Shown here piece by piece: positions 7,083 through 56,569 of a DNA stretch of 64,000 bases. The translations under genes were made by a program, and so were the position numbers. This DNA comes from Lamellibrachia satsuma. Its lineage: Eukaryota > Annelida > Polychaeta > Sabellida > Siboglinidae. The notes under the pieces are model-generated. The model was given only the letters and a program-made list of their open reading frames with translations. It was not told the DNA's origin and did no database searches. The stretch is taken from the NCBI GenBank assembly GCA_033239005.1, contig BSQZ01000018.1, forward strand, positions 8,976,536-9,040,535. The letters run 5' to 3'. The first letter of the stretch is position 1, and each line of letters starts with the position of its first letter.

Positions 7083-7321
7083 TCACTTCTCCTGCCGTTC
7101 CTCTTTCTTCTCGTCAATCCGAGGCAGCTCAAGAACGCAGTCAGTGCCCGGGTACTCAGGGAGGTTCAACTCATACTTCCTGGCGAGCTCAAGGGGAACA
7201 AACCTGCCACCAAGGTAGTGGTGTCTTCCCTTGAAGACGCGGGAGCAGCGCTTTGGAGCAGTCAGGGAGATGAGCAATTCCGGCTGGAGACCGCCTGGAT
7301 CTCCCTCTTCCACATCCCAGC
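7083..7321 (-). CDS. NAXE: NAXE coding exon 5 (C-terminus and stop)
   Basis: 239 nt, entered in phase 1 after TTTCCTAG. It completes Gly201 and reads [20 protein letters not shown], then [20 protein letters not shown] and [11 protein letters not shown], followed by a charged tail KKEERQEK and TGA at 7085-7083. The tail is longer and more charged than in vertebrates. No AATAAA is visible close downstream; the nearest on this strand is near 6340 inside a CR1 remnant. A 7-bp repeat starts about 70 nt past the stop. Confidence 0.96.
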
Positions 7322-10300
7322 CTAGGAAATGAAACAGGCATGTTACAAGTTTCCCATATGGATAATGTTTTGGGAAGCCCAACTCTTGCCTTCATACACT
7401 TTCATCCCCACAAAATCTTAAGAATGTGACATGCTGACAAAATCTGCATTTAAAATTGTACCTTTTAAAATTTATGGACTAAAAATTGCACCATTTTTTA
7501 TCCTTCTGCCAGGTGGGATAAATGTACCTCTTTTGTAAGCAACATACATGTGTACTTATACAACACACGTGTACTTATACAACATACATGTGTACTTATA
7601 CAAATACTGATACAACATCCATGTGTACTTACACAAATTTGTTTGAGTATATCTCATTTAACAACCAGTGGAAATTTGAATTTTCTGAAATGATGACACC
7701 ATTTAACTAATTTGTCTAGATCGTTTTGTAAATGTTGCTTATCACCATCAATGTGATTCTTTCTAAACACATTTGTGTCATCAGCACATTTCAATATGTT
7801 GCTTGTTATATTATTGTCCAAGTCATTGATATAAATAAGAATAATAAAGGTCCTAATACTGATCCTTGTGGTACCCCACTCAAAACTGATTTCTTGTTTG
7901 AAACCTCCCCATCTACTATAACATGCTGTCTTCTGTCAGTCAGCCATTGTTCTATCCAGTCGATTATACGTCCCCGATACCATGGGCTTTTAATGTAAGT
8001 AGTTATCTTTGATGTGGCACTTTGTCAAAAGCTTTCTGAAAAACTAAGTACTGGTGATCCGTTGTCTATCCACTTAGTGACTTCGTCATAGAAACAACAT
8101 ATTTGTTAAGCAAGACCTCACCTTAAGGAATTTATGTTAAGATGGATTTAATAATTTATGCCTGACAAGAAAGTCCTCCATATGGTCTTTAATTATCCTT
8201 TCTAGCAATTTACAAATCACCAATGTTAAACTCACTGGTCTCTAATTATTTGTCTTATTTCTTGAACCATTTTTAAATAATGGTATGATGTTTGCTTCTT
8301 TCCATTCAAAAGGAACAACTCCCTCTTTTAATGATAAGTTGAACACTCTTGCAAGTGGTACACTGACTTGTTATACAGTTTCCATGAGTTGTTTTGGAGG
8401 TGATTTTTGTATCCGTCCTTGCCTTTATTATCTTAGCTACCTTTCTAGAGTTACAATTAACTGCCCTATACAGTCCGATTTAGCCTCCTGAAATTTAGCA
8501 TCTGGAATGGGTAATGAACTAATATTCTTTCTGGTAAACACTGAACTGAAGTATCCATTTAGGTCTTCCACCATTAAAAACCCTTGTGATATTATATTTC
8601 CAGCACTGTCTTCTAATGGTCCATCCTTATCTCATACGTATTGTTTACTCCTGATATATGCATATTTATGTTACATGCTAATTTTTTTTCATCGCTTCTT
8701 TTAGATTGTCTAATTTTAGTCTTGGCTGCATTAAATGCCTTTTTGTAATTTGTGTAATCTTCATCCTTTATAGGTGTACCAGAAATAGTTTGATTGTACA
8801 CTATTTTTCTAATAGCTTCTTTTGACAAGTGTTTCTTTCTAGACTGTTTTCCTTGTTTTTTCAAGGGAACAAACTGATAAATTTCATATTTTTGAATGTT
8901 TCAACATTCAGTTGCTGTCTTATTCCTCAGCATGTTATTCCAATCTAGCATTGCTAAGTATTTTCTCATATCTTTATATTTACCATTGTGGAAGTTTCCC
9001 CTGAACTTTTTTCTTTCTGATTTTACTTTGATGTCATAATGTATATTGATTATGATCACTGTTATCCAATGGCTCATGTATTTTATTTGTCCACAAATTC
9101 TTTTGTGATCACAAAACTGTATCTAATACATTATCTTCCCTGGTTGGTTCTAGCACACGTGGAGTAGGGAAGCTCTCTTGAATTAAAGGTAGAATCTGTT
9201 GGTCCTCACCCCCTGTACTCTCTAGAGATTTACATTGTATGTGTCTGAGGTTGAAATCTCCCATTATGATACATTCCCCTTTACTGACTTCCTTTATAGC
9301 ATTTTGTATTTTTGTGTTATCCCCTTCATTTATGTTTGGACTTTGGTAAACTAATCCAATAGTTAATGTTGAATTTCCTGTAATTTCAAGTTACATTGAA
9401 GTCAAGGTTGAATAATGCTATGCAGTCTTTTAGGTGTACTTAATTCACAGGTCTTACTGTAGCAGCTATGAAATTCACAGCAGCAGCTGCAGCAGCCATC
9501 AGACAACAGCTACAATAATCAAAACAGCAGCTTCAGCAGCTACTACAACAGCAGCTACAACAATCACAACAACAACTGCAGCAGCCACTACAACAGCAGC
9601 TACAACAATCACAACAACAACTGCAGCAGCCACTACAACAGCAGCTACAACAATCACAACAACAACTTCAGCAGCTACTACAACAGCAGCTACAACAATC
9701 ACAACAACAGCTGCAGCAGCCACTACAACAACAGCTACAACAATCAGAACAGCAGCTGCAGCAGCCACTATAACAGCAGCTATAACAATCAGAACAGCAG
9801 CTGCAGCAGCCACTACAACAACAGCTACAACAATCACAACAACAACTGCAGCAGCCACTACAACAGCAGCTACAACAATCACAACAACAACTGCAGCAGC
9901 TACTACAACAGCAGCTACAACAATCACAACAACAGCTGCAGCAGCCACTACAACAACAGCTACAACAATCAGAACAGCAGCTGCAGCAGCCACTATAACA
10001 GCAGCTATAACAATCAGAACAGCAGCTGCAGCAGCCACTACAACAACAGCTACAACAATCACAACAACAGCTGCAGCAGCCACTACAACAGCAGCTACAA
10101 CAATCAGAACAGCAGCTGCTGCAGCCACTACAACAGCAGCTACAACAATCGCAACAGCAGCTACTGCAGACACTACAACAGTAGCTACTGCAGACACTAC
10201 AACAGCAGCTACTGCAGACACTACAACAGCAGCTGCTGCAGACACTACAACAGCAGCTGCTGCAGACACTACAACAGCAGCTATTGCAGACACTACTACA

Positions 10301-13300
10301 ACAGCAGCTACTGCAGACACTACAACAGCAGCTACTGCAGACACTACAACAGCAGCTACTGCAGACACTGCAACAGCAGCTGCTGCCGACACTACAACAT
10401 CAGCTCCTACAGACACTACAACAGCAGCTGCTGCAGACACTACATCAGCAGCTACTGCAGACACTACAACAGCAGCTGCTGCAGACACTACAACAGCAGC
10501 TACTGCAGACACTACTACAACAGCAGCTACTGCAGACACTACAACAGCAGCTACTGTAGGCACTACAACAACAGCTACTGCAGACACTACAACAGCAGCT
10601 ACTGCAGACACTACAACAGCAGCTACTGCAGACACTACAACAGCAGCTACTGCAGACACTACAACAGCAGCTACTGCAGACACTACAACAGCAGCTACTG
10701 CAGACACTACAACAGCAGCTACTGCAGACACTACAACAGCAGCTACTGCAGACACTACAACAGCAGCTACTGCAGACACTACAACAGCAGCTACTGCAGA
10801 CACTACAACAGCAGCTACTGCAGACACTACAACAGCAGCTACTGCAGACACTACAACAGCAGCTGGTGCAGACACTACAACAGCAGCTGCTGCAGACACT
10901 ACAAAAGTAGCTGCTGCAGATACTACAACAGCAGCTGCTGCAGACACTACAACAGCAGCTACTGCAGACACTACAACAGCAGCTGCTGCAGACACTACAA
11001 CAGCAGCTACTGCAGACACTACAACAGCAGCTACTGCAAACACTACAACAGCAGCTGCTGCAGACACTACAACACCAGCTACTGCAGACACTACAACAGC
11101 AGCTGCTGCAGACACTACAACAGCAGCTACTGCAGACACTACAACAGCAGCTACAACAATCGCAAGAGCCACAAGATGTAACTGTAGAGTTGATGAGATT
11201 TCCAGTAGAAACTAACACAATTGACACTGTCATCTACTGGATGTGGTCGGTGCTGCTGTGCAGTCAGACATGATAGCCTTGGTCAAGGGTTTGGAATGTG
11301 ATTATGTGTGTGTGAGTGATGAAAGTACAAGGATGCTCTGATGTGGGATTAGATTATGGACAGCACTGATGGCCACAGAGAGATTGTCCAGTGGACATGA
11401 GGCCACAGACCCTAGGTGCAGCCACCAGCAGGCCTTGCATGATACCAGTGTGCCAGCAGGGATGGCCAACTATTGGTCATTATTCAGGTCCAGGACCCCT
11501 GTAGCTTGTACATTGAAACCCATCTGGCCATTCTGGGAAACTGACCAGAGGATCAACAGTCAATACACATCATAACATCATTATATGCTATCTGAGTGTG
11601 TTATATTCTTCAACATAGATACAATTCCTGACTAATGAGTGTCTCTGAGGAGGTGACAAAACACTTGATCTGTTGCTCTGTGGAGACATCCAGATCAAGT
11701 GAAATAACCCCAAAGACACACTGGATCTCTGTCTACTGTTTTACTGGTTATTTCAAAAGTAACCAAACAAATTATTTACATCCAGCTAGATTCCTTTTTT
11801 AAAACACAAACAATTTTGTATGATAATTAATATGGATTTAGAATGGAACATTCAACTGAATTTGCTGCTCTTGAATTAACTGATACAATAATTACATAAA
11901 TGGATAATAATGAAATACCTATAAATATCTTCTTAGACCTTTCAAAAGCATGTGACACCGTTGACCATATGATATTACAAGCTAAATTATACTATTTTGG
12001 CATAAAAGGTGTAGACTTAGATTTAGTTAGAAATTATTTAACAGATCAAAAAGAGTATGAGGAAATAAAGGACATCAAACCAAATATGCTGAACACCACA
12101 GGGCTCGATTGTAGGCCCATTGATTTTTATTACATATATTAATGATTTTGTTGAGTCCAACATTTTATAATGTATGTCGATGATACCACGCTTTCAAGTA
12201 ACCTAGACTCATTTTCAACTCATGAAGAAAATGGAAATGTAGAATTCTCTATCAACATAGAACTGCATAAAATCAGTGAATGGCTTGAACTAAACAAATT
12301 ATCTCTTAACCTAATCAAAACTGTTACTAAAAATGGATAATATAAACATTGCTAGAATGCATGAATTCAATGTTCTTGGATTAACTTTTATTGAACAATT
12401 AAACTGGAAAAGCCATATCGAAAAAATTTCAAATAAGTGCTCAAGAACGTTAAGTATTCTCAACAGATTATTACCTCTTAACATAAAAATGATGTTGTAC
12501 AACTCACTGATTTTGCCACATTTGAACTATGGCATAATGCCCTGGGGCTACAAATGTGACAGAATAAAAAAATGCAAAAGAAAGTCCTCCGAATTATAAG
12601 TGTACGCAAATATAATGCTCACTGTTTAAAAGTCTTAAATTATTAAAATACACTCAAATTACAAGAACTAAAAATATATTATAAATTACCTGTGTACCTT
12701 TAACATGTCTGCTCAAAACAGTAGCATTCACAACTTCAACACACATGGGTAACACACAGTGAGAGTACAACACACAAGTAATACAACATACACACAGTGA
12801 GAGTACAACACACAAGTAATACAACATACACACAGTGAGAGTACAACACACAAGTAATACAACATACACACAGTGAGAGTACAACACACAAGTAATACAA
12901 CATACACACAGTGAGAGTACAACACACGGGCAATACAACATACACACAGTGAGAGTACAACACACAGGCAATACAACATACACACAGTGAGAGTACAACA
13001 CACGGGCAATACAACATACACACAGTGAGAGTACAACACACAGGCAATACAACATACACACAGTGAGAGTACAACACACAAGTAATACAACATACACACA
13101 GTGAGAGTACAACACACAAGTAATACAACATACACACAGTGAGAGTACAACACACAAGTAATACAACATACACACAGTGAGAGTACAACACACAAGTAAT
13201 ACAACATACACACAGTGAGAGTACAACACACGGGCAATACAACATACACACAGTGAGAGTACAACACACTGGCAATACAACATACACACAGTGAGAGTAC

Positions 13301-16300
13301 AACACACGGGCAATACAACATACACACAGTGAGAGTACAACACACGGGCAATACAACATACACACAGTGAGAGTACAACACACAGGCAATACAACATACA
13401 CACAGTGAGAGTACAACACACGGGCAATACAACATACACACAGTGAGAGTACAACACACGGGCAATACAACATACACACAGTGAGAGTACAACACACGGG
13501 CAATACAACATACACACAGTGAGAGTACAACACACTGGCAATACAACATACACACAGTGAGAGTACAACACACTGGCAATACAACATACACACAGTGAGA
13601 GTACAACACACGGGCAATACAACATACACACAGTGAGAGTACAACACACGGGCAATACAACATACACACAGTGAGAGTACAACACACGGGCAATACAACA
13701 TACACACAGTGAGAGTACAACACACGGGCAATACAACATACACACAGTGAGAGTACAACACACGGGCAATACAACATACACACAGTGAGAGTACAACACA
13801 CGGGCAATACAACATACACACAGTGAGAGTACAACACACGGGCAATACAACATACACACAGTGAGAGTACAACACACGGGCAATACAACATACACACAGT
13901 GAGAGTACAACACACGGGCAATACAACATACACACAGTGAGAGTACAACACACGGGCAATACAACATACACACAGTGAGACTACAACACACGGGCAATAC
14001 AACATACACACAGTGAGAGTACAACACACGGGCAATACAACATACACACAGTGAGAGTACAACACACGGGCAATACAACATACACACAGTGAGAGTACAA
14101 CACACGGGCAATACAACATACACACAGTGAGAGTACAACACACGGGCAATACAACATACACACAGTGAGAGTACAACACACGGGCAATACAACATACACA
14201 CAGTGAGAGTACAACACACGGGCAATACAACATACACACAGTGAGAGTACAACACACGGGCAATACAACATACACACAGTGAGAGTACAACACACGGGCA
14301 ATATAACATACACACAGTGAGAGTACAACACACGGGCAATACAACATACACACAGTGAGAGTACAACACACGGGCAATACAACATACACACAGTGAGAGT
14401 ACAACACACGGGCAATACAACATACACACAGTGAGAGTACAACACACGGGCAATACAACATACACACAGTGAGAGTACAACACACGGGCAATACAACATA
14501 CACACAGTCAGAGTACAACACACGGGCAATACAACATACACACAGTGAGAGTACAACACACGGGCAATACAACATACACACAGTGAGAGTACAACACACG
14601 GGCAATACAACATACACACAGTCAGAGTACAACACACGGGCAATACAACATACACACAGTGAGAGTACAACACACGGGCAATACAACATACACACAGTCA
14701 GAGTACAACACACGGGCAATACAACATACACACAGTGAGAGTACAACACACGGGCAATACAACATACACACAGTGAGAGTACAACACACGGGCAATACAA
14801 CATACACACAGTCAGAGTACAACATGAAGTTGCTAAACACAGTCAGATTTAACAAGATTGAACAAGATTTGCCATCCAAGCCAAAGGCCCAGATGGCAAG
14901 TGGACAAGGAAGCCATTGGCTTATCGAGAGTCAAACAATGTTCATCTACGTGTAACCCGCCCTCCTGAGATATGTGTTCAACTTGTTTTTATACATATTG
15001 ACGCTGCTAGCAGTTACACAATCCATAGACAATTTGTTCCATTCATTTACTGTCCTCTGTGAGAAGGAGTACTTCCTGATACGCAATCTACACTGATCCT
15101 TTACTAATTTTACCTCATGTCTTCTGGTACTACTTTCTTTCTTCAATGAGAGAAACATATTTCTATCAAGATTTTCATACCCACAGACATGATTTTTGCT
15201 GCTCATCAAGTGCAGGAAAAATGTTGTAAACAAAGACGTGACCTATTGCCTTCATCGATCTATCTAAGGCATCTGACTCTGTGAACAAAGACGTGACCTA
15301 TTGCCTTCATCGATCTATCTAAGGCATCTGACTCTGTGAACAAAGACGTGACCTATTGCCTTCATCGATCTATCTAAGGCATCTGACTCTGCGAACAAAG
15401 ACGTGACCTATTGCCTTCATCTATCTATCTAAGGCATCTGACTCTGTGAACAAAGACGTGACCTATTGCCTTCATCGATCTATCTAAGGCATCTGACTCT
15501 GCGAACAAAGACGTGACCTATTGCCTTCATCGATCTATCTAAGGCATCTGACTCTGTGAATAAAGACGTGACCTATTGCCTTCATCGATCTATCTAAGGC
15601 ATCTGACTCTGTGAACAAAGATGTTTTATGGGGCTGCCTTGCCCGGCTTGGATGTCTTCCTAAATTTGTCTCTGTTACTTGACAACTACACAAGAATATG
15701 AAAGGATGTGTATTGCATGATGGTGATCAATTAGAACCATTTAACATCAACACTGGTGTGAAACAGGGCTGTGTAATTGCACACACACTCTTTTCTATAT
15801 TTCTGGCTGCCTTCCTATCACAAAGAAGATAGATCTAGCTAAGTGAGTGGACATCAAATATCATAGTAAGGAAGCTGTCCAGAATTACATATAGAAATTG
15901 TTGGTCCTCACCCCCTGTACTCTCTAGAGATTTCCATTGTATATGTCCATGGTTAAATTCTCCCATTATGATACATTCCCCTTTACTCACTTTCTTTATA
16001 GCATTTTGTATTTTTGTGTTATCCTCTTTGTTTATGTTTGGACTTTGGTAAACTAATCCAATAGTTAATGTTGAATTTCCAGAAACTATTTTGTACTAAA
16101 CAGCTTCATCGCAATCTTCTTCCCTTTCTAATTTTATTTCATAAGCTTGGATAGATTCTTTAACATATAAAATAACTCCCCCTCCCCTTCTTCCTATTCA
16201 ATCTCTCCTAAACATTACGTATCCTGTCAGTCCTAATTCAGCATATGTTACGTCTGTGTTTAATTAGTTTTTCTTATTTACTATGCTCCTTGCATTTAAA

Positions 16301-19300
16301 CATACACATTCATAATCAGCTTCAGAGATGTTTTCCTGACATTTTATTACCGGTTTGTGTGTACTAGTGGCCTCTTGTCCTGCTTGAGGCACCTCTAAGT
16401 ACCCTCCCCGCGCTTCTAGTTTAAACAATGTTTTATACTAAAAATATTTGTTATGCTACACTATCTATTGCTGCTGAGAGTTGATCCGCAACCACTGCTG
16501 CCCCTTTCCACTCCCCATCCCTCATGTACAGATCAGCCCTCCCAACAAAACTTCCCCATAAATCCAACTTCCACTTCCTTACATAGCTTCTGGACTAGCA
16601 TGTTAATTGCCATCCCTTGGCAATTTCGATATCTCTGACCCCTCCTTCCTATTACTATTACAATTTTGATATCTCTGACCCCTCCTTCCTATTACTATTA
16701 CAATTTTGATATCTCTGACCCCTCCTTCCTGTTACTATTACAATTTTGATATCTCTGACCCCTCCTTCCTGTTACTATTACAATTTCGATATCTCTGACC
16801 CTTCCTTCCTATTACTATTACAATTTTGATATCTCTGACCCCTCCTTCCTATTACTATTACAATTTTGATATATTTGACCCCTCCTTCCTATTACTATTA
16901 CAATTTTGATATCTTTGACCCTCCTTCCTATTACTATTACAATTTTGATATCTCTGACCCTTCCTTCCTATTACTATTACAATTTTGATATATCTGACCC
17001 CTCCTTCCTTTTACTATTACAATGTTGATATATCTGACCCCTCCTTCCTATTACTATTACAATTTCGATATTTCTGACCCCTCCTTCCTATTACTATTAC
17101 AATCTTAGATATACTTTGCCACACACGATAAATAATGCACCTGAATGTGACCTGATGTATTGAAAAGCAAAATATCAATTCAGAGTCTACATGGTTTTGC
17201 AACCTATAACAAAAATTATTATTTGCAAACTTATACATCGCTATGTAATAACAGAAACTGTTATAAATGCCAACAGGAAGGATTATGTAATTACACCGCC
17301 TTTGACAATGAACCAGCCATACCAAATCATTTATTATGTCATGTTTTTCTGTTATAGAGCTATATAGCCTAGATTGTTTTTATTATTTGTATAATCTGTA
17401 AATTGTACTTAATTGCACATAGGATGGCTCCTGTGAGAGCGACTAGTCTAGCTTTAATGGAAGTCTCCTGGCCCCTTATTTGATATTTGTGTTATAATTA
17501 TACTTTAACTACTTATACTGGTATGTACATACTCACTTGTTTAGTGATATGCATTTGGGCCTAATAAAAACATCTGTCTGTCTGTCTGTCTATTTACAGC
17601 AGTGACATTCACTGCCTTGTAAATGATGCAGTCATCATGCAGCATACATGGACCAATTATTGGAAGAAGCCTCATGTGCATCTTTCCATCCCAGACGACA
17701 CATTGGCCGACTGCTGTTGCTAACTTTAGCTTTCAGATGCAATGTTTGATGAGCTGTCTTGTGTCTAAGCCCAGCACTTAACTATGAATCTTGTGGCTTA
17801 CCTTCCCCTCAATGAAATGCAAGTATGTCGCAGGAAGCCACAATAAGTCAGGTATACTATATTTAGATGTCAACAAATTGATGCTTTAAAGACTTTGGAT
17901 TCTACTGGCCCTTTCTATTGTTGAGCAGCCTCTTAGAAAGAGCAGAACCCAACGAGTGATGAAAGCATTATGATGAATGCATAATTATCACAACGGGAAA
18001 CATTTATAGAACACTGAGCAGTATTGGAAGTCTGGAGTGAGTGTTTGCCAGACAGGTGACGGCAAGCAACAGGAAGTCTTCACTAACCCATCAGCAAAGG
18101 GGAACTATTGAGAAGTCAGTTTACCAGTCGATAGATCAATGCTGGAGATAGGCAGGCTACAGTTACTTAACAGATGGCACATCGATGCTGGCAATAGGCA
18201 GGCTACAGTTTCTTACAAGACAGCACATCAATGCTGGCAACTAGCAGGCTACAGTTTCTTACCAGACGGCACACCATTACTGGCAATAGGCAGGCTGCAG
18301 TTTCTTACCAGACAGCACATCAATGCTGGCAACTGGCAGGCTACAGTTTCTTACCAGACAGTACATCAATGCTGGCAACCGGTAGGCTACAGTTTCTTAC
18401 CAGACAACACATCATTGCTGGCAACCAGCAGGCTACAGTTTCTTACTAGATGGCACATCAATGCTGGCAACCAGCAGGCTACAGTTTCTTACCAGACAGC
18501 ACATCAATGCTGGCAACTTGCAGGCTACAGTTTCTTACCAGACAGTACATCAATGCTGGCAACCGGTAGGCTACAGTTTCTTACCAGACAACACATCATT
18601 GCTGGCAACCAGCAGGCTACAGTTTCTTACCAGACAGCACATGAATGCTGGCAACCAGCAGGCTACAGTTTCTTACCAGACAGTACGTCAATGCTGGCAA
18701 CCAGCAGGCTACAGTTTCTTACCAGATAGTACATCAATGCTGGCAACCAGCAGGCTACAGTTTCTTACCAGATGGCACATCATTGCTGGCAACCGGCAGG
18801 CTACAGTTTCTTACCAGACAGTACATCAATGCTGGCAACCGGCAGGCTACAGTTTCTTACCAGATGGCACATCATTGCTGGCAACTGGCAGGCTACAGTT
18901 TCTTACCAGACGGCACATCAATGCTGGCAACTGGCAGGCTACAGTTTCTTACCAGATGGCACATCAATGCTGGCAACCAGCAGGCTACAGTTTCTTACCA
19001 GACGGCACATCAATGCTGGCAACCGGCAGGCTACAGTTTCTTACCAGACGGCACATCAATGCTGGCAATCAGCAGGCTACAGTTACTTACCAGACTGCAC
19101 ATCAGTGCTGCCAACCGGCAGGCTACAGTTTCTTATCAGATAGCACATCATTGCTGGCAACCGGCAGGCTACAGTTACTTACCAGATGGCACATCAATGC
19201 TGGCAATCAGCAGGCTACAGTTACTTACCAGACTGCACATCAGTGCTGCCAACCGGCAGGCTACAGTTTCTTATCAGATAGCACATCATTGCTGGCAACC

Positions 19301-22300
19301 AGCAGGCTACAGTTACTTACCAGACGGCACATCAATGCTGGCGATAGGCAGGCTGCAGTTACACAGTTGTTGTATTATGATTGCGAACTCAGGCCGCGCA
19401 GGTCCCTTGAAGCTGAAGCCAAAGAGAGCGTCGATGACAAAGTTGAAGGAGTCTGTGATGAGTTTGGACTCGGAGGGCAGGTACGACAGGAAGGGAATGT
19501 CCATCTTCTCACACTGAGTGGTCATGTTGTTCAACAGAGGCTTGTTGGGGCGCTTCGGGTAGAAGATAGTTGGGTGGTAACCCTGCAACAGATGATGTCA
19601 AAGGTCAAGACTGCAACTGGTATATAATAATAATAATAACACAAACAATAATAACAAACCATAATAGTTAATCAAACACTAAGAATAAGATATCAATTTA
19701 TGAAATAATTGTTAGTAATTTATTAAAATAGTTAATGATGATTTACTAATCTTACTGATGAAGTGATTACAAGACTCGTTTTACAATCATAGGACATTGG
19801 TTGAAAGCCTAAGCATCATGTTCTCTCTCGATGACATTATCTTAGGTTTGTTTTGAGGTCTATATTAAGGTCACATGCAAGTACTTGGTATATCATCATC
19901 ATCACCATCATCATAATCAATAGGGCCGGACGGCCAGTGTATCGTGATACACACCACATGGTACATCTACACGATACACAATATCCGTATTGCGGTACAC
20001 TACGATATGTGATAGCGGTAGACAAAACATTATTCACGTCACCTTTGTGAAGCAATAAATATTCAACATGAACCACACCTGCCTGTGATAAAATAATGAA
20101 ATATAACATGTAGTGTATTTCCCACATGTGTATCTAACTATAATCTACATAAAATCTTGCCACTATTATTTTTTTCAATGCGCGCTTGTGAGTGACGATG
20201 TGACGTCTGCTGTAGTGTTGCCTTGTCCACGTCATAAATAAATGTGTTTTATTGTTGTTGTATCATTCTAGTCAGTGTAGTCTGTATCGCGATATGTATC
20301 GTAATGTGAAGTAGTGTATCATTGCGGTCCTAATAATCAACATCATCAATGATCCATGGAAGGAATGGAAGCAACAAGCAGCATGTGTTCCCTCTGCACT
20401 GTCTCGTTGTATGAGTGAGGAGACTTCAGCTAGCCTAAGAACTATATCAAGCAGTTGAGGGTACGTCACGACTTTCCTTCCCTGCGTCTCAGCTGTCCTC
20501 TAGGGGGTCTCCAAAAGACCATCTTGGAGACTGGTTGGTCGACTGCCCTAGTGCAGTTGATGATGTTGGTAGGTGACATATAAATGCGTCCAGTTTTGTA
20601 TTACTAAACGAAATGTCGTAAGTGGAGGGTGGTTTAATTAATTTCAATTAAGTATTGCAATATTACAGGTTCACGTCTGGAGTCCTTTGAAGCCTGAGAC
20701 GTCAGTGAATATCAACTGACAGCTGAACACAAGCCTCAAGGCAAAGCTAATTAATGTAATAAAACTGTATTGATCCAAGTATCACATAACTGGCAACAAG
20801 AGGACATCTAGCGTCAGATGACATCCGCTGTGTGACAAGAGGACATCTAGCCTCAGATGACATCCGCTGTGTGACAAGGAGGCACTCACAAATAGTTTGA
20901 GGTGTCGGGCGCACACGAGACCGTCCCCTCCGTTGTTACCCGGGCCGCAGCACACCAGCACTGCTCCGTTCTCCTTGGGAAGAGTCTCCTTAGGGAACAC
21001 CTGGGTGGGAAAAACAATAACGTATCTGAACAAATGCCTCCTTAGATGAACAGTCGTGCATGCATTTGAACTGTGCAAATGGCTGATGAGAAAACATACT
21101 TGCATGTGGCTGTTTTTGATACCAAATATCATGTCTCATCAAGATGCCTAGTCTCAGATGATACATGTTATAGCAGTCCATGTACTGTAAAGAGTATATG
21201 CATGGTAAGATATTGATAGATTACTGCAAGAAGATAAGACCTTATGCTCATCGACAGAGTGTCATTAGACTCTAGAACAAGGAAGTACAGTTAGACATGC
21301 TAGAACAGAAGATTCACTGAGGGAAACAATATGTGGATGCATGTTTGTTCATGTATGTCCATGTATGTCCATGTATGTCCATGTTTGTCCATGTTTGTTC
21401 ATGTATGCCAATGTTTGTTCATGTTTGCCCATGTATGCCCATGTATGTCCATGTATGTCCATGTATGTCCATGTTTGCCCATGTATGTCCATGTATGCCC
21501 ACGTATGCCCACGTATGTCCACGTATGCCCACGTTTGTCCACGTATGCCCACGTATGTCCACGTTTGTCCACGTATGTCCACGTTTGTCCACGTATGTCC
21601 ACGTATGTCCACGTTTGTCCACGTTTGTCCATGTATGTCCATGTATGTCCATGTATGTCCATGTATGTCCATGTATGTCCACGTATGTCCACGTTTGTCC
21701 ACGTATGTCCACGTATGTCCACGTATGTCCATGTTTGTCCATGTATGTCCATGTTTGCCCATGTTTGCCCATGTATGTCCATGTATGTCCATGTATGTCC
21801 ACGTATGTCCATGTATGTCCACGTATGTCCATGTATGTACATGTATGTCCATGTATGTCCACGTATGTCCCTCTATGTCCATGTATGTCCACGTATGTCC
21901 ACGTATGTCCATGTTTGTCCATGTATGCCCATGTATGCCCATGTATGTCCATGTATGTCCACGTATGTCCACGTATGTCCACGTTTGTCCACGTATGTCC
22001 ATGTATGTCCACGTATGCCCACGTATGCCCACGTATGTCCACGTTTGTCCATGTATGTCCATGTACATTGTATGTCCACGTATGCCCATGTATGTCCATG
22101 TATGTCCATTTATGTCCACGTATGTCCAAGTATGCCCATGTTTGTCCATGTATGTCCATGTATGTCCATGTATGTCCACGTATGTCCCTCTATGTCCACG
22201 TATGTCCATGTATGTCCATGTATGCCCACGTATGTCCATGTATGTCCACGTATGTCCACATATGCCCAGGAATGTCCATGTATGTCCATGTATGTCCATG

Positions 22301-25300: not shown

Positions 25301-28300
25301 TGCATGACCTACCCTTGCGATGGCGACGGCACAGCTGAGTCCTGCTAGCTCCATGAGCTGATCCACGCTGAAGGCGTACTCCGTGAACAACTCCTGGTCA
25401 ATCCGCTGGGCCTCGTCCTGGCTGCAACATTTATTTATTATTTTTAAGGGTGACATGGTTGTGTATTCAAAGCATGACACCTCTTCACTCTAACTGCAGG
25501 CAGTCAAGATAAATAAAGTCTGCATCATTTATATCTTATGCATTTCTAGTATTGCAATAGATAGCACAAAATGACGAGAATAATTATGGATGTGTGTGAG
25601 CATGTGAGCGTGCGTGCATGCGTGCATGCGTGCGTGCATGCATGCATATCACATTATTCATGAATTCATGAATGATTCATTTTGTGAAGTTTTATATATG
25701 ACATTTGAACTGCAGTGCGTCTGCACCTGTCAATGCTTGGCCACATTTAACTATCAATTTACAGCTCCTCAGATATTTTAACAGTAATAAAGATCAATCA
25801 TCAGTTATGTCGACTGCACTTATAATTCACTCTACATATTAATGCCTGCCAGAACTTAACCATCAACATTTCTGTGTGTGAAAAAACAATTCTTCACAAA
25901 ACTAAAGATGAATGTAAGCATTCATTAGAATACACTGTCATGGCATTATCAATGAAGAACTTTTTTCTCAAACCTTTAAAGTTAACAAAGGTGACTTCAG
26001 TCACGCAAACCATAATTAGTGTCTTTCATTGCAGAGTGCAAATCTAAGTAGCACTAGTGGCACCAGAACACCAGAACAGTAATGGTGTAATGGTGTAATG
26101 GTGTAATGGTGTAATGCATTAGTTTTATTACTGCTGAGATTCACTGGCCACTGCAGCTGTACAGCTTACTGAAATGAACATAGTTGTCAATATAACCATG
26201 TGTACTGGGTACATCAGTACAAGAAAGAGGATGGCATATTTTCATAGTTTTGAGTAGCACTAGTAATAAACTGATACAGTGAAGCCTGGACTACCACTGG
26301 CTTGTGCAGCACTAGTAATAAACTGATACAGTGAACCCTGGACTACCACTGCCTTGTGCAGCACTAGTAATAAACTGATACAGTGAAGCCTGAACTACCA
26401 CTGGCTTGTGCAGCACTAGTAATAAACTGATACAGTGAAGCCTGGACTATCACTGGCTTGTGCAGCACTAGCAATAAACTGATACAGTGAAGCCTGGACT
26501 ACCACTGGCTTGTGCAGCACTACCTGGTAGTAATAAACTGATACAGTGAAACCTGAACTACCACTGGCTTGTGCAGCACTACCTGGTAGTAATAAACTGA
26601 TACAGTGAACCCTGGACTACCACTGCCTTGTGCAGCACTAGTAATAAACTGATACAGTGAAGCCTGAACTACCACTGGCTTGTGCAGCACTAGCAATAAA
26701 CTGATACAGTGAAGCCTGGACTACCACTGGCTTGTGCAGCACTACCTGGTAGTATTAAACTGATACAGTGAAACCTGAACTACCACTGGCTTGTGCAGCA
26801 CTACCTGGTAGTAATAAACTGATACAGTGAACCCTGGACTACCACTGCCTTGTGCAGCACTAGTAATAAACTGATACAGTGAAGCCTGGACTATCACTGG
26901 CTTGTGCAGCACTAGTAATAAACTGATACGGTGAAGCCTGGACTACCACTGGCTTGTGCAGCACTAGTAATAAACTGATACGGTGAACCCTGGACTACCA
27001 CTGGCTTGTGCAGCACTAGTAATAAACTGATACGGTGAAGCCTGAACTATCACTGGCTTGTGCAGCACTAGCAATAAACTGATACAGTGAAGCCTGGACT
27101 ACCACTGGCTTGTGCAGCACTAGTAATAAACTGATACGGTGAACCCTGGACTACCACTGGCTTGTGCAGCACTAGTAATAAACTGATACAGTGAAGCCTG
27201 GACTATCACTGGCTTGTGCAGCACTAGCAATAAACTGATACAGTGAAGCCTGGACTACCACTGGCTTGTGCAGCACTACCTGGTAGTAATAAACTGATAC
27301 AGTGAAACCTGAACTACCACTGGCTTGTGCAGCACTACCTGGTAGTAATAAACTGATACAGTGAACCCTGGACTACCACTGCCTTGTGCAGCACTAGTAA
27401 TAAACTGATACAGTGAAGCCTGAACTACCACTGTCTTGTGCAGCACTAGTAATAAACTGATACAGTGAACCCTGGACTACCACTGGCTTGTGCAGCACTA
27501 GTAATAAACTGATACGGTGAAGCCTGGACTATCACTGGCTTGTGCAGCACTAGCAATAAACTGATACAGTGAAGCCTGGACTACCACTGGCTTGTGCAGC
27601 ACTAGTAATAAACTGATAAGGTTAAGCCTGGACTACCACTGGATTGTGCAGCACTAGTAATAAACTGATAAAGTGAAGCCTATCACTGTCTTGTGCAGCA
27701 CTAGTAATAAACTGATACAGTGAAGCCTGGACTACCACTGGCTTGTGCAGCACTAGTAATAAACTGATACGGTGAAGCCTGGACTATCACTGGCTTGTGC
27801 AGCACTAGTAATAAACTGATACGGTGAAGCCTGGACTACCACTAGCTTGTGCAGCACTAGTAATAAACTGATACAGTGAACCCTGGACTACCACTGCCTT
27901 GTGCAGCACTAGTAATAAACTGATACAGTGAACCCTGGACTACCACTGGCTTGTGCAGCACTAGTAATAAACTGATACAGTGAACCCTGGACTACCACTG
28001 GCTTGTGCAGCTCTAGTAATAAACTGATACAGTGAACCCTGGACTACCACTGGCTTGTGCAGCACTACTAATAAACTGATACAGTGAAACCTGAACTACC
28101 ACTGGCTTGTGCAGCACTACCTGGTAGTAATAAACTGATACAGTGAAAGCTGAACTACCACTGGCTTGTGCAGCACTACCTGGTAGTAATAAACTGATAC
28201 AGTGAACCCTGGACTACCACTGGCTTGTGCAGCACTAGTAATAAACTGATACAGTGAACCCTGGACTACCACTGGCTTGTGCAGCACTAGTAATAAACTG

Positions 28301-31300: not shown

Positions 31301-34300
31301 GTTTATGCATACATTTATGAAAAAATTTCAAGCATTGACGTGTGAAAATGTCTTCAATTTTGAACAGGTTTAGAGATTTCATTATAGGTTCCATGTGTGA
31401 GTTGTTTTTTCTGAAGTTTTATGAAGTTTGGATAGTGTATTCATATCAAAACCCCACGATAAAATGCTACAGTTGAAATGTGGCATGATTAAAGAATCAT
31501 ACATAGTCTTTAATGTGTATCCCAGTAGGAAGTGCTTTAGTTTATTCATGACTCCCAAAATTTGTGATATTTTATTTGATATTCTGTCAATGTGTAAAGT
31601 CCGGTTTAATGTTTCTTGAATAATAGTGCCTAACTATTTTTATTTGCGTATGCACTCTATGGGTTGACCGTCTATTTGTGCCATTAATTTTATATCTGAA
31701 ATACTACGTTGTGGAAAATGGAACATGTTTTTAGTTTTACTTTTGTCTTTAGGGAAAGTTTGTTTACAGATAACAATTCACTGATATGGTTCAGTTCAGT
31801 GTTAATGTTGTCGCTGATAGTATTATAGTCTTGCATATTACTCTTAGTATTGCATTTGAAAGAGCAGAGTGGTCTGACAAGAGTGGTAATCATCAGCATA
31901 TAGTATCACCTTGAATTTATTTTTAGCAAGATGAATATCATTTATATAGAGAGCAAATAATAGAGGACCTAGTATTGACCCCTGTGGGACACCTGTTGAG
32001 ATAGATAATGTGTCTGACATTATATCATCGAATTGGACAAATTGGCGTCTTTCGGTAAGGGAATTCATTACCAAAATTAACGGAGTCCGATTTATTCTGT
32101 AATGTTCAAGCTTTTTGAATAAAATATTGTGATTTATGATATCAAAGGCTTTTAACAAATCTAAGAAAATTGATATGGGGATTTTTCTGTTGTCTAAGTT
32201 TTGAAAAAGTGTGTCAATTAGTTCAAGTGTAGCCGTTTCAGTGGAATGTAATTTCCTAAACCCATATTGACTTTTGTAAAACAATTTGTTTATAGTTATA
32301 TACACAAATATTTTATCGTATACAATTTTTTCTAAGACTTTGGAAATGGAAGTAAGTAATGAGCTGGGAAAGTAATTATTGAGCAGGGTTTTATCATTGT
32401 TTTTATACATAGGAATAACTTTTGCAATTTTTTATTTTTGGAGAAAATATTATTCCTGTGTTTAGGGATTGATTAATAATGAGAGACAAGGGTTTAAAAA
32501 TTAGTGAATTAATTCTTCTTAGTAAAACTGTTGAAATTGAGTCATGACCTGCACTTCTCTTTGGATCAAAATCCTTGATAATTTAGTATTACAATATCTT
32601 CAGTTACTGGTTTGTAATTAAACATTGAGAGAGACTAGTTCTTTAAATAATGGGTAAAAGCTGTTTGTGTATGAGTGCTGGGAACTGAACGTACCAGTTT
32701 ACTGCCAATATTTACAAATAACTTGTTAAACCTACGTGCTATTTGCGTGGTATTGGTAACATACAATCCATTTACCTGGGTATATAGAAATTATTTGAAA
32801 ATTTTAATTTTGTGTTGTTCTTATTTATAAATTGTTTAATTGTGTCCCATGTTTTCCTGGTGTTTGATTTGAATTAATCAAATAGGTTTCTGTAGTAGAT
32901 CTTTTTGGCGTTTCTGATAGGTCTATTTAAATTTTTTATATACACGAAGATTCACCGATGTTATTGTAAGAGGTGTCACTTTGTGACGTCTGTTGTAGTT
33001 TCTGGCATAGTTTGCCTTTACATCTAATGTATTTAATAATTCCTGCTGTTCTCCAGCTGAACTTTTTATGTTTATACTTATTACAGCGAACTGTTTAACA
33101 GGACAGTGATTTATGTACAACTGAGTGAGTAGGCCTTCAATTATTATAGCGAACTGTTTAACTGGACAGTGATTTATGTACAACTGAGTGAGTAGGCCTT
33201 CAATTATTATAGCGAACTGTTTAACTGGACAGTGACTTACATTCAACTGAGTGAGTAGGCCATCAATTATTACAGCGAACTGTTTAACAGGACAGTGATT
33301 TATGTACAACTGAGTGAGTAGGCCTTCAATTATTATAGCGAACTGTTTAACTGGACAGTGATTTACGTTCAACTGAGTGAGTAGGCCTTCAATTATTATA
33401 GCGAACTGTTTAACAGGACAGTGATTTATGTACAACTGAGTGAGTAGGCCATCAATTATTATAGCGAACTGTTTAACTGGACAGTGACTTACATTCAACT
33501 GAGTGAGTAGGCCTTCAATTATTATAGCGAACTGTTTAACAGGACAGTGATTTATGTACAACTGAGTGAGTAGGCCTTCAATTATTATAGCGAACTGTTT
33601 AACAGGACAGTGATTTATGTACAACTGAGTGAGTAGGCCTTCAATTATTATAGCGAACTGTTTAACTGGACAGTGATTTACGTTCAACTGAGTGAGTAGG
33701 CCTTCAATTATTATAGCGAACTGTTTAACTGGACAGTGATTTACGTTCAACTGAGTGAGTAGGCCTTCAATTATTATAGCGAACTGTTTAACTGGACAGT
33801 GATTTACGTTCAACTGAGTGAGTAGGCCTTCAATTATTATAGCGAACTGTTTAACAGGACAGTGATTTATGTACAACTGAGTGAGTAGGCCATCAATTAT
33901 TATAGCGAACTGTTTAACTGGACAGTGACTTACATTCAACTGAGTGAGTAGGCCTTCAATTATTATAGCGAACTGTTTAACAGGACAGTGATTTATGTAC
34001 AACTGAGTGAGTAGGCCATCAATTATTATAGCGAACTGTTTAACTGGACAGTGACTTACATTCAACTGAGTGAGTAGGCCTTCAATTATTATAGCGAACT
34101 GTTTAACAGGACAGTGATTTATGTACAACTGAGTGAGTAGGCCTTCAATTATTATAGCGAACTGTTTAACTGGACAGTGATTTACGTTCAACTGAGTGAG
34201 TAGGCCTTCAATTATTATAGCGAACTGTTTAACTGGACAGTGACTTACGTACAACTGAGTGAGTAGGCCATCAATTATTATAGCGAACTGTTTAACTGGA

Positions 34301-37300
34301 CAGTGATTTATGTTCAACTGAGTGAGTAGGCCTTCAATTATTATAGCGAAATGTTTAACTGGACAGTGATTTACGTACAACTGAGTGAGTAGGCCTTCAA
34401 TTATTATAGCGAACTGTTTAACTGGACAGTGACTTACGTTCAACTGAGTGAGTAGGCCTTCAATTATTATAGCGAACTGTTTAACAGGACAGTGATTTAC
34501 GTACAACTGAGTGAGTAGGCCTTCAATTATTATAGCGAACTGTTTAACTGGACAGTGATTTACGTTCAACTGAGTGAGTAGGCCTTCAATTATTATAGCG
34601 AACTGTTTAACTGGACAGTGATTTACGTTCAACTGAGTGAGTAGGCCATCAATTATTATAGCGAACTGTTTAACTGGACAGTGATTTACGTTCAACTGAG
34701 TGAGTAGGCCATCAATTATTATAGCGAACTGTTTAACTGGACAGTGATTTACGTTCAACTGAGTGAGTAGGCCTTCAATTATTATAGCGAACTGTTTAAC
34801 AGGACAGTGATTTATGTACAACTGAGTGAGTAGGCCATCAATTATTATAGCGAACTGTTTAACTGGACAGTGACTTACATTCAACTGAGTGAGTAGGCCT
34901 TCAATTATTATAGCGAACTGTTTAACAGGACAGTGATTTATGTACAACTGAGTGAGTAGGCCATCAATTATTATAGCGAACTGTTTAACTGGACAGTGAC
35001 TTACATTCAACTGAGTGAGTAGGCCTTCAATTATTATAGCGAACTGTTTAACAGGACAGTGATTTATGTACAACTGAGTGAGTAGGCCTTCAATTATTAT
35101 AGCGAACTGTTTAACTGGACAGTGATTTACGTTCAACTGAGTGAGTAGGCCTTCAATTATTATAGCGAACTGTTTAACTGGACAGTGACTTACGTACAAC
35201 TGAGTGAGTAGGCCATCAATTATTATAGCGAACTGTTTAACTGGACAGTGATTTATGTTCAACTGAGTGAGTAGGCCTTCAATTATTATAGCGAACTGTT
35301 TAACTGGACAGTGATTTACGTTCAACTGAGTGAGTAGGCCTTCAATTATTATAGCGAACTGTTTAACTGGACAGTGATTTACGTTCAACTGAGTGAGTAG
35401 GCCTTCAATTATTATAGCGAACTGTTTAACTGGACAGTGATTTACGTTCAACTGAGTGAGTAGGCCTTCAATTATTATAGCGAACTGTTTAACTGGACAG
35501 TGATTTACGTTCAACTGAGTGAGTAGGCCTTCAATTATTATAGCGAACTGTTTAACAGGACAGTGATTTATGTACAACTGAGTGAGTAGGCCTTCAATTA
35601 TTATAGCGAACTGTTTAACTGGACAGTGATTTACGTTCAACTGAGTGAGTAGGCCTTCAATTATTATAGCGAACTGTTTAACTGGACAGTGATTTACGTT
35701 CAACTGAGTGAGTAGGCCTTCAATTATTATAGCGAACTGTTTAACTGGACAGTGACTTACGTACAACTGAGTGAGTAGGCCATCAATTATTATAGCGAAC
35801 TGTTTAACTGGACAGTGATTTACGTTCAACTGAGTGAGTAGGCCTTCAATTATTATAGCGAACTGTTTAACTGGACAGTGATTTACGTACAACTGAGTGA
35901 GTAGGCCATCAATTATTATAGCGAACTGTTTAACTGGACAGTGATTTACGTTCAACTGAGTGAGTAGGCCTTCAATTATTATAGCGAACTGTTTAACTGG
36001 ACAGTGATTTACGTTCAACTGAGTGAGTAGGCCTTCAATTATTATAGCGAACTGTTTAACTGGACAGTGATTTACGTACAACTGAGTGAGTAGGCCTTCA
36101 ATTATTATAGCGAACTGTTTAACTGGACAGTGACTTACGTTCAACTGAGTGAGTAGGCCATCAATTATTATAGCGAACTGTTTAACTGGACAGTGATTTA
36201 TGTTCAACTGAGTGAGTAGGCCTTCAATTATTATAGCGAACTGTTTAACTGGACAGTGATTTACGTTCAACTGAGTGAGTAGGCCTTCAATTATTATAGC
36301 GAACTGTTTAACTGGACAGTGACTTACGTACAACTGAGTGAGTAGGCCATCAATTATTATAGCGAACTGTTTAACTGGACAGTGACTTACGTTCAACTGA
36401 GTGAGTAGGCCTTCAATTATTATAGCGAACTGTTTAACTGGACAGTGATTTACGTTCAACTGAGTGAGTAGGCCTTCAATTATTATAGCGAACTGTTTAA
36501 CTGGACAGTGACTTACGTACAACTGAGTGAGTAGGCCATCAATTATTATAGCGAACTGTTTAACTGGACAGTGATTTATGTTCAACTGAGTGAGTAGGCC
36601 TTCAATTATTATAGCGAACTGTTTAACTGGACAGTGATTTACGTACAACTGAGTGAGTAGGCCATCAATTATTATAGCGAACTGTTTAACTGGACAGTGA
36701 TTTACGTTCAACTGAGTGAGTAGGCCTTCAATTATTATAGCGAACTGTTTAACTGGACAGTGATTTACGTTCAACTGAGTGAGTAGGCCTTCAATTATTA
36801 TAGCGAACTGTTTAACTGGACAGTGATTTACGTACAACTGAGTGAGTAGGCCTTCAATTATTATAGCGAACTGTTTAACTGGACAGTGACTTACGTTCAA
36901 CTGAGTGATTAGGCCTTCAATTATTATAGCGAACTGTTTAACAGGACAGTGACTTACATACAACTGAGTGAGTAGGCCATCAATTATTATAGCGAACTGT
37001 TTAACTGGACAGTGACTTACATTCAACTGAGTGAGTAGGCCTTCAATTATTATAGCGAACTGTTTAACTGGACAGTGACTTACGTACAACTGAGTGAGTA
37101 GGCCTTCAATTATTATAGCGAACTGTTTAACAGGACAGTGACTTACGTACAACTGAGTGAGTAGGCCTTCAATTATTATAGCGAACTGTTTAACTGGACA
37201 GTGACTTACGTTCAACTGAGTGAGTAGGCCTTCAATTATTATAGCGAACTGTTTAACTGGACAGTGATTTACGTTCAACTGAGTGAGTAGGCCTTCAATT

Positions 37301-55650: not shown

Positions 55651-56569
55651 AAGTCATCTATAAAAATTGTACTTGAGAATCTGATGGTTGCCACATTAAG
55701 ACAAGCGCAGTCAGAGGGGATCAAGGAAGATCATCATTACCTCAGGAGGTAAACCATCTGGTCATGACCGTCTTCAATACAATAATGAGTTGTGTTATAT
55801 TCTACAAGGATCAGACGAGTCCTTAAATTACGGGACAGCTGAAAGTGCTTTACCCTTGGCAGACTTGTTCATTCCAATGCCATCTCAACTTGTCTGCGAA
55901 GCATTCAGCCATGCTGTAATTACTGCACAAAGATTATTTGTTCAGATATCCAACCATGCAGATAGATTAGCACAGATCTGCACACTTAACACACCAGTGA
56001 CCATGCAGGACTGATACATGTCCCTCACAATAATTACAGTTTGTTTTGTCTGACAAAGAGAAGTTTGTAATCTATATAAAACTGAGAGTGGAACCACCAA
56101 GTGGGCAAATAGGTCACAAAATACTGTTTCAGTTAGTGGCGCAACCAAGTGGGAAAACTACTCACAAAATACTACTTCAGTTAGTGGTGCCAACAAGTGG
56201 AAAAACACATGAATATACTGGATGACAGACAATTAAAAAGCCATTCAATAATTAGTCAAAATGTGAATTAATGTCATTTTTTTCATTTTGATGAAATGAC
56301 TACTAGCTAAATATAAATGTGTGTGGTTCATCTGATTATTAGAAAGTAATTTGAATAAAACCAAGTAAAATTATTATAAAGCAAATGCACTGGTAGATTT
56401 CTTTGCCTTATAAAATGCAAAATGTGTGAGTCTTCACCCTCCCACTTGGGCTACAGTGGAGCTGTTGTAGTATCCAACGTACCTGAGCAGCTTCACACTT
56501 CCACTCATGTTCCTGGTGACAGAGATGACAGCGGGACGACACAGCCCCAGGAATCTCTTGATACACAGC
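55651..56569. other. unique sequence with one ~58-bp duplication
   Basis: 56095-56215 contains two diverged copies of a segment with CACAAAATACT, TTCAGTTAGTGG and CAAGTGG. Nothing else recognised. Confidence 0.4.

What the first reader, a model, noticed from the sequence alone, without database searches (positions are those of the whole stretch)
18136..19366. A minisatellite built from a coding-exon end and its splice donor
The 46-bp array in NAXE intron 4 is not intronic in origin. Each unit carries the last ~31 nt of exon 4 ([12 protein letters not shown]) plus the donor and ~15 nt of intron. About 23 of 26 units keep GTAAGT/GTAAGA next to a copy of the exon end. The spliceosome therefore faces a ladder of near-identical donors, only the first giving the right protein. 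Read-through of the first unit hits TAA within two codons, and the next units are +1 in frame, so wrong choice would truncate NAXE. This is an unusual case of a functional exon boundary acting as a tandem-repeat seed.
Basis: seen in the sequence. Interest (0 to 1): 0.88.

Follow-up and report, generated by a model that had tools for sequence, protein, structure and literature searches.

The report
Tandem repeat grown from exon's end
In a tubeworm-like animal genome, the last 40 or so letters of an exon plus its splice signal stand copied 26 times in a row in the following intron; the copying is real, but it looks like a by-product of a repeat-rich genome, and repeats that multiply splice signals have been described before.

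Summary
On the minus strand, NAXE exon 4 (19582-19321) ends in a segment that is followed, in phase and without a gap, by 26 further 46-bp copies (19313-18118), each 78-89% identical to the exon end. 22 of 26 keep GTAAGT (3) or GTAAGA (19). The boundary at 19321 fits an open five-exon reading frame, homologues and five one-exon ORFs. Copies 2, 3 and 5 have the true donor's sequence. All 26 downstream donors give ...PSGK-stop. Best reading: a local duplication primed by GTAACTG (exon -42; intron +5), expanded in blocks, tolerated because it lies in an intron. No transcripts or relatives' DNA could be examined. Arrays fill 52% of the window and some lie in what look like LINE coding sequences, so an exon seed is not astonishing; minisatellites with multiple splice donors are known (human IFI6/6-16). 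Verdict: a real, well-preserved new member of a known kind; function unproven, probably none.

The parts
19321..19582 (-). NAXE exon 4, 262 nt; ends ...IASIDVPS + first base of Gly codon (phase 1)
   Evidence: homologues
19315..19323 (-). true 5' splice site of exon 4, CTG|GTAAGT
19314..19362 (-). seed segment: exon end (42 nt from 19362, or 39 from 19359) plus first 7 nt of intron
19356..19362 (-). GTAACTG, exon copy of the 7-nt direct repeat proposed to have primed the duplication
   Evidence: read; register
19310..19316 (-). GTAACTG, intron copy of the same direct repeat (intron +5 to +11)
   Evidence: read; register
18118..19313 (-). 26 copies of the 46-bp unit in intron 4 (copy 26, 18163-18118, shares least with the array consensus, 34 of 46)
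19221..19231 (-). copy 2 donor, same -3..+8 sequence as the true donor; nearest intact competitor (+92 nt)
19175..19185 (-). copy 3 donor, same -3..+8 sequence as the true donor (+138 nt)
19083..19093 (-). copy 5 donor, same -3..+8 sequence as the true donor (+230 nt)
19050..19300 (-). 3-unit (138-bp) block duplication: copies 1-3 and 4-6, longest exact run 113 bp
18336..18630 (-). 4-unit (184-bp offset) block duplication: copies 16-18 and 20-22, longest exact run 111 bp
7322..19320 (-). NAXE intron 4, 11,999 nt, GT...AG
7083..7321 (-). NAXE exon 5 (last coding exon, stop included), begins GC TGG = rest of Gly, Trp
20890..21000 (-). NAXE exon 3
25313..25421 (-). NAXE exon 2
53442..53560 (-). 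NAXE coding part of exon 1 (from the first ATG; a second in-frame ATG lies at 53554)

Best explanation
An exon-seeded minisatellite. In an ancestor of this animal (probably a siboglinid tubeworm near Ridgeia, by protein similarity), replication slippage or misaligned repair between two copies of GTAACTG, one 42 nt before the end of NAXE exon 4 and one at intron +5, duplicated 46 bp made of about 42 nt of exon and GTAA of the donor. Further block duplications and homogenisation then expanded it into the intron to 26 copies. The first copy stays the working exon end because purifying selection holds it, and it keeps being spliced at 19321. The copies carry donor sequence by descent, not for a function. 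If one is used by mistake, the mRNA reads ...PSGK-stop and would be a target for nonsense-mediated decay, so errors cost some mRNA but make no wrong full-length protein. Shown here: sequence homology, phase, donor census, edge pattern, effect on the reading frame, and a boundary that fits homologues. Inferred: the slippage step, use of the first donor in vivo, decay of mis-spliced mRNA, absence of function.
For: Gapless phase and 78-89% identity of 26 copies to the exon end. The exon looks like the ancestral party: its ...[10 protein letters not shown] is identical in Ridgeia and close to that in the other aligned homologues, while 21 of 26 copies encode V for that I and vary at all three codon positions (93 third-, 39 second-, 30 first-position differences from the exon; without the four near-fixed sites 20, 39, 9). 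Edges of the array keep exon states: 'TA' at unit positions 14-15 in copies 23, 25, 26 only (3 of the last 4, 0 of 22 others; Fisher p = 0.0015, grouping chosen after seeing the data), and donor +6 T only in copies 2, 3, 5 and 25 of 26. Upstream homology stops 3 nt beyond the unit, at GTA, where GTAACTG lies. Block duplications at offsets of 3 and 4 units (exact runs of 113 and 111 bp; 5 of 500 shuffles of unit order reach 113). Three one-exon ORFs from unnamed sources (P0121, P0124, P0129) that run on past the boundary for 16, 18 and 37 residues show no second copy of the exon end. Background: 52% of the window is tandem array, and some other arrays lie in peptides that look like LINE coding sequence.
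Against: No transcript or relative's DNA could be read, so use of 19320 is inferred from homologues. The GTAACTG model is a reading of the present sequence: the far end of the array (GTAAACTGACTT) lacks the GTA that the model predicts and needs a 3-nt loss. The copies nearest the exon are not the most exon-like (copy 1 is the least, 36 of 46). The excess of near-fixed exon-to-array differences at third codon positions (3 of 4) is too small to count. That P0121, P0124 and P0129 are genomic read-through rather than odd transcripts is inferred; they are distant (74, 66, 71% identical), and P0121 has a short echo (LPSGK, 13 residues after VPSGK) that I take for chance. Absence of function is not demonstrated.
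Confidence: 0.75

Rival explanations
1. Splicing rheostat: the copy donors compete with the true donor, a share of NAXE transcripts is diverted into ...PSGK-stop mRNA and destroyed, and the share depends on copy number, so array length sets NAXE output.
For: Three copies have the true donor's -3..+8 sequence and 17 more pair moderately with U1; none of 1227 GT sites in the other 10.8 kb of the intron pairs as well as the true donor. Local folding does not hide the copies: predicted accessibility of the true donor ranks 22nd of 27. All 26 downstream donors give PSGK-stop, and from copy 2 on the stop lies 84 nt or more before the junction, which fits the 50-55 nt rule for decay (rule recalled).
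Against: No RNA data. Donor-like hexamers are in the consensus of 5 other arrays of this window, so they need no selective reason. Copy 1, the closest competitor, is dead, and 22 of 26 copies lack the +6 T.
Confidence: 0.12
2. U1 platform: the repeated donor-like sites recruit U1 snRNP, which strengthens definition of exon 4 or protects the 12-kb intron from premature polyadenylation; the sites help although they are not cut.
For: 20 of 26 copies pair with U1 at -8.0 kcal/mol or better; roles of U1 away from splice sites are recalled knowledge, not searched here.
Against: No test was possible; nothing here shows that the array is conserved in any relative.
Confidence: 0.05
3. Reverse origin: an intronic minisatellite came first and overwrote the exon end by slippage or conversion.
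For: Array and exon end are alike and contiguous.
Against: The exon end encodes a motif identical in Ridgeia and close to that of the solved ApoA-I binding protein, of 1jzt and of four other aligned homologues; the exon keeps I in PIAS where 21 of 26 copies encode V.
Confidence: 0.02
4. Assembly artefact: copy number or order is wrong.
For: Tandem arrays are hard to assemble, and no reads could be checked.
Against: Copies differ by point changes in an ordered way, with two separate block duplications and distinctive ends; an artefact would not create the exon homology.
Confidence: 0.03

Closest known systems
Human IFI6 (6-16, G1P3) minisatellite (Turri, Cuin and Porter 1995, NAR 23:1854; paper not held; title seen in reference lists, and one sentence citing it in PMC4526556)
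   Same: A minisatellite whose repeat units serve as multiple splice donors behind an exon.
   Different: From recall, its unit is about 12 bp, little more than the donor consensus. The extra donors there are reported as used to make isoforms (sentence). Here the unit is 46 bp, mostly coding exon, wrong donors truncate the protein, and use is untested.
Variable internal tandem repeats at exon-intron boundaries of human duplicated genes (PMC2812944; passages seen)
   Same: Minisatellite-class repeats that overlap an exon edge and alter splicing; 27 intron modifications reported there.
   Different: There units average 30 bp repeated 4 times in recently duplicated primate genes with RNA support; here 46 bp in 26 copies beside one conserved gene, without RNA data.
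Intron gain by tandem duplication of exonic sequence (PMC2891723, passages; PMC4974935, title and start of abstract in a listing; Zhuo et al. 2007 PNAS on introns from tandem arrays, title in a reference list)
   Same: A local duplication of exon sequence creates extra splice signals; premature stops in the new segment.
   Different: There a duplicated proto-splice site makes a new intron; here an existing donor is multiplied inside an existing intron.

Membership tests
NAXE (NAD(P)H-hydrate epimerase; YjeF_N domain) | YjeF_N domain match above Pfam cut-off | tested here: met
   PF03853, 113.5 bits against cut-off 24.9
NAXE (NAD(P)H-hydrate epimerase; YjeF_N domain) | Nearest solved homologue is ApoA-I binding protein (NAXE) along most of the length | tested here: met
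   2dg2 and kin, 278.8 bits, query 2-190 of 203
NAXE (NAD(P)H-hydrate epimerase; YjeF_N domain) | Open reading frame across all coding exons with GT-AG introns | tested here: met
   Five exons join to 840 nt, 279 residues, one stop at the end; four GT-AG introns
NAXE (NAD(P)H-hydrate epimerase; YjeF_N domain) | Epimerase activity | not testable with these tools
   none
Minisatellite | Head-to-tail units of roughly 10-100 bp, several copies | tested here: met
   46 bp, 26.7 copies
Minisatellite | Length variation between individuals | not testable with these tools
   one sequence only
Minisatellite providing multiple splice donors (IFI6 type) | Array overlaps an exon end and its donor | tested here: met
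Minisatellite providing multiple splice donors (IFI6 type) | Units carry donor sequence of usable predicted strength | tested here: met
   U1 pairing: 3 copies equal to the true donor (-10.7 kcal/mol), 17 at -8.0, 6 at -5.3 or weaker; donors of exons 2 and 3 of the same gene -9.7 and -6.6
Minisatellite providing multiple splice donors (IFI6 type) | Downstream unit donors are used in transcripts | not testable with these tools
   no RNA data held
Intron gained by tandem duplication | Intron at a new position, created by the duplication | tested here: not met
   The exon 4 edge after PSG is shared by five one-exon ORFs from other sources, so the intron position is not new
Intron gained by tandem duplication | Duplicated segment supplies both donor and acceptor | not tested
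   acceptors in the units were not scored

The most novel reading that the evidence does not exclude
The array is a length-tunable splice decoy: each allele offers a different number of donors identical or close to the true one, all of which send the mRNA to decay, so unequal exchange at this minisatellite produces heritable steps in NAXE output without touching the protein, and exon-end-seeded arrays of this sort are common in tubeworm genomes.
Probability: 0.08. Interest if true: 0.72.

Novelty: new member of a known kind. Interest (0 to 1): 0.4.

Why it matters
It is a clean natural record of how a minisatellite can start: the seed is still legible because it is still an exon end, so the likely direction of copying, the edges and a possible priming repeat can be read. 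It is also a natural test of splice-site choice, with 4 identical donors (true, +92, +138, +230 nt) and 17 weaker ones in a row, only the first giving full-length protein. If RNA shows that the first is used almost alone, that says how strongly exon context and order outweigh the donor sequence itself.

Tried and rejected
Structural masking of the copies: not supported; local folding gives the true donor rank 22 of 27 for accessibility, 0.003 against a mean of 0.033 for the others. Codon-position bias as proof of an old exon state: 3 of 4 near-fixed differences at third positions, too few. Looking for the array in bacterial and archaeal genome contigs, in case of host contamination: 0 exact matches to one pattern; the tool warns that the window's own genome may be left out. 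The window's own genome: the genome search did not complete in 8 tries, so no genome-wide census was possible. Search for NAXE proteins cut short after exon 4: 58 hits, of which I opened 5 of the first 9 (P0121, P0122, P0124, P0125, P0129); these look like one-exon ORFs from other, unnamed sources, not tubeworm isoforms; the other 53 were not opened. Literature on minisatellites or tandem repeats at splice donors and exon edges: (0 papers); on tubeworm repeats: one paper, PMC9921365, passages seen: repeat content 30.2% in Ridgeia; nothing on exon-edge arrays in the passages shown; Riftia with minisatellite: 0 papers. The CTNS paper PMC5628181 (passages) describes an ordinary intronic VNTR.
Full report
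What is there. The minus strand of the window carries a five-exon NAXE gene (NAD(P)H-hydrate epimerase): coding exon 1 at 53560-53442, exon 2 at 25421-25313, exon 3 at 21000-20890, exon 4 at 19582-19321, exon 5 at 7321-7083. Joined, they give 840 nt, 279 residues and a single stop at the end, with four GT-AG introns of 28,020, 4,312, 1,307 and 11,999 nt. The protein from exons 3-5 matches PF03853 YjeF_N, the solved ApoA-I binding protein and, first of 6505 database hits (120 listed), a Ridgeia piscesae protein at 88% identity. The animal is therefore probably a vestimentiferan (siboglinid) tubeworm near, but not identical to, Ridgeia; the species itself is not established.

The array. The first 1.2 kb of intron 4 are copies of a 46-bp unit. 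When units are cut in register with the donor, copy 0 is the exon end itself (19359-19314) and copies 1-26 follow without a gap to 18118. The 26 copies match the exon end at 36-41 of 46 positions, mean 84%, and each other at 88% on average; the best match elsewhere in the window is 27 of 46. Homology goes 3 nt further into the exon (GTA) in copies 2, 3 and 5, which keep the GTAAGTA end, and then stops. The unit is thus 39-42 nt of exon and 7-4 nt of intron.

The boundary. Ridgeia and four other aligned homologues join ...PSG directly to WxVE. From a second protein search (58 hits) I opened 5 proteins from unnamed sources that cover exon 4 (P0121, P0122, P0124, P0125, P0129). All five leave the alignment right after PSG, and the four that include the start begin at ...Q|GY, the other edge of exon 4. 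They look like one-exon ORFs read from genomic DNA (inference), so the boundary is old. P0121, P0124 and P0129 run on for 16, 18 and 37 residues and show no second copy of the exon end, so these sources appear to lack the array at that point; P0121 has a short LPSGK 13 residues after its VPSGK, which I take for chance.

Direction and mechanism. The exon probably came first: its [10 protein letters not shown] is identical in Ridgeia and close to that in the other aligned homologues, while 21 of 26 copies encode V for that I. Differences of the copies from the exon number 93 at third, 39 at second and 30 at first codon positions; without four near-fixed sites they are 20, 39 and 9, which does not look like coding constraint. 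Array edges, which are expected to homogenise least, keep exon states: TA at unit positions 14-15 in copies 23, 25, 26 (3 of the last 4, 0 of the other 22; p = 0.0015, grouping chosen after seeing the data), and +6 T in copies 2, 3, 5 and 25 only. Overall identity to the exon does not fall smoothly with distance: copy 1 is the lowest at 36 of 46. Growth was by blocks: copies 1-3 and 4-6 share a 113-bp exact run at offset 138, copies 16-18 and 20-22 a 111-bp run at offset 184; 5 of 500 shuffles of unit order reach 113. The seed is flanked by GTAACTG at exon -42 (19362-19356) and intron +5 (19316-19310), 46 bp apart, which is what slippage needs; this step is inferred. Against it, the last unit ends GTAAACTGACTT and requires loss of three bases.

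Donors. Among copies 1-26 there are 19 GTAAGA, 3 GTAAGT, 2 ATAAGA, 1 TTAAGT, 1 GTAAAC. Pairing with the U1 5' end (11-mer from recall, ViennaRNA duplex) is -10.7 kcal/mol for the true donor and for copies 2, 3 and 5, -8.0 for 17 copies, and -5.3 or weaker for the other 6; the true donors of exons 2 and 3 score -9.7 and -6.6. In the remaining 10.8 kb of the intron none of 1227 GT sites reaches -10.7, though four lie between -10.1 and -9.5. Local folding does not favour the true donor. So by donor sequence alone the choice is open between four equal sites; what would favour the first is exon context and order (established idea of exon definition, recalled, not tested here).

Consequences. Each of the 26 downstream donors, if used, gives ...PSGK-stop. 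The stop lies 38 nt before the junction for copy 1 and 84 nt or more for copies 2-26. By the 50-55 nt rule (recalled), all but copy 1 would be decay targets; copy 1 happens to have a dead donor (ATAAGA), which may be chance, since 4 of 26 copies lack GTAAGT/GTAAGA.

How surprising. Tandem arrays cover 52% of the window, 53 after merging. Under a simple model (one seed of 40 bp per array) 0.27 seeds would overlap one of 8 NAXE splice boundaries; the median TRF period is 23, so this is on the high side. Placing whole arrays at random leaves 0 or 1 boundary covered in 6% of 4000 trials, so exons seem otherwise avoided, at borderline strength; in that call exon 2's start was entered 2 nt off (25423), which does not matter here. 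Some other arrays lie within peptides that look like LINE coding sequence (by eye), and donor-like hexamers are in the consensus of 9 of 43 TRF rows, which are 6 distinct arrays including this one. A donor-bearing array born at an exon edge is therefore a rare but natural outcome here.

Known relatives. The human 6-16 (IFI6) minisatellite provides multiple splice donors: title in reference lists and one introductory sentence in PMC4526556 saying that two downstream repeat units are used as donors; the original paper is not held. PMC2812944 (passages) reports minisatellite repeats at exon-intron boundaries that change introns in human duplicated genes. PMC2891723 (passages) reports introns born by tandem duplication of exonic sequence in Drosophila. 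I judge this a new member of the IFI6 kind on anatomy; the use of the extra donors in transcripts is untested.

Not established: transcripts, copy-number variation, relatives' DNA, species name.

Noticed in passing
33078-37555 (ORF 38046-32923, minus): A 63-bp unit repeated about 71 times stays open in one 1707-residue frame. Flanking peptides ([24 protein letters not shown] before; [18 protein letters not shown] after, in another frame) look like a LINE endonuclease-RT linker by eye; Pfam gave no hit for the upstream flank. Perhaps a minisatellite seeded inside a LINE ORF.
   Followed up: partly
47437-47973 and 15225-15621: 23-bp (23 copies) and 55-bp (7 copies) arrays also sit beside or inside peptides that look like LINE reverse transcriptase (CPAW...; [14 protein letters not shown]...), by eye; Pfam gave no hit for the piece before the first.
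   Followed up: partly
44706-45519, minus strand (NAXE intron 1): A 20-bp array of about 40.7 copies holds GTAAGT 36 times, 34 of them as CTGCAGTGGTAAGT, an acceptor-like and a donor-like motif two bases apart; no exon recognised beside it.
   Followed up: partly
NAXE exons 1-5: Each of the five exons has a tandem array close on its 3' side (108, 37, 12 nt, overlap, 68 nt), while the nearest array on the 5' side is 951, 177, 340, 1214, 219 nt away. One gene only; may be chance.
   Followed up: no
20796-20878: A 39-bp duplication (2.1 copies) starts about 12 nt behind the exon 3 donor of the same gene; it does not include the donor.
   Followed up: partly
18118-19313: Eight copies (1, 8, 13, 14, 15, 16, 19, 20) carry a perfect TGCTGG-TTG-CCAGCA hairpin that the exon end lacks; it might favour slippage.
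   Followed up: no
56567-63998: A 37-bp array of about 201 copies runs 7.4 kb to the end of the window.
   Followed up: no
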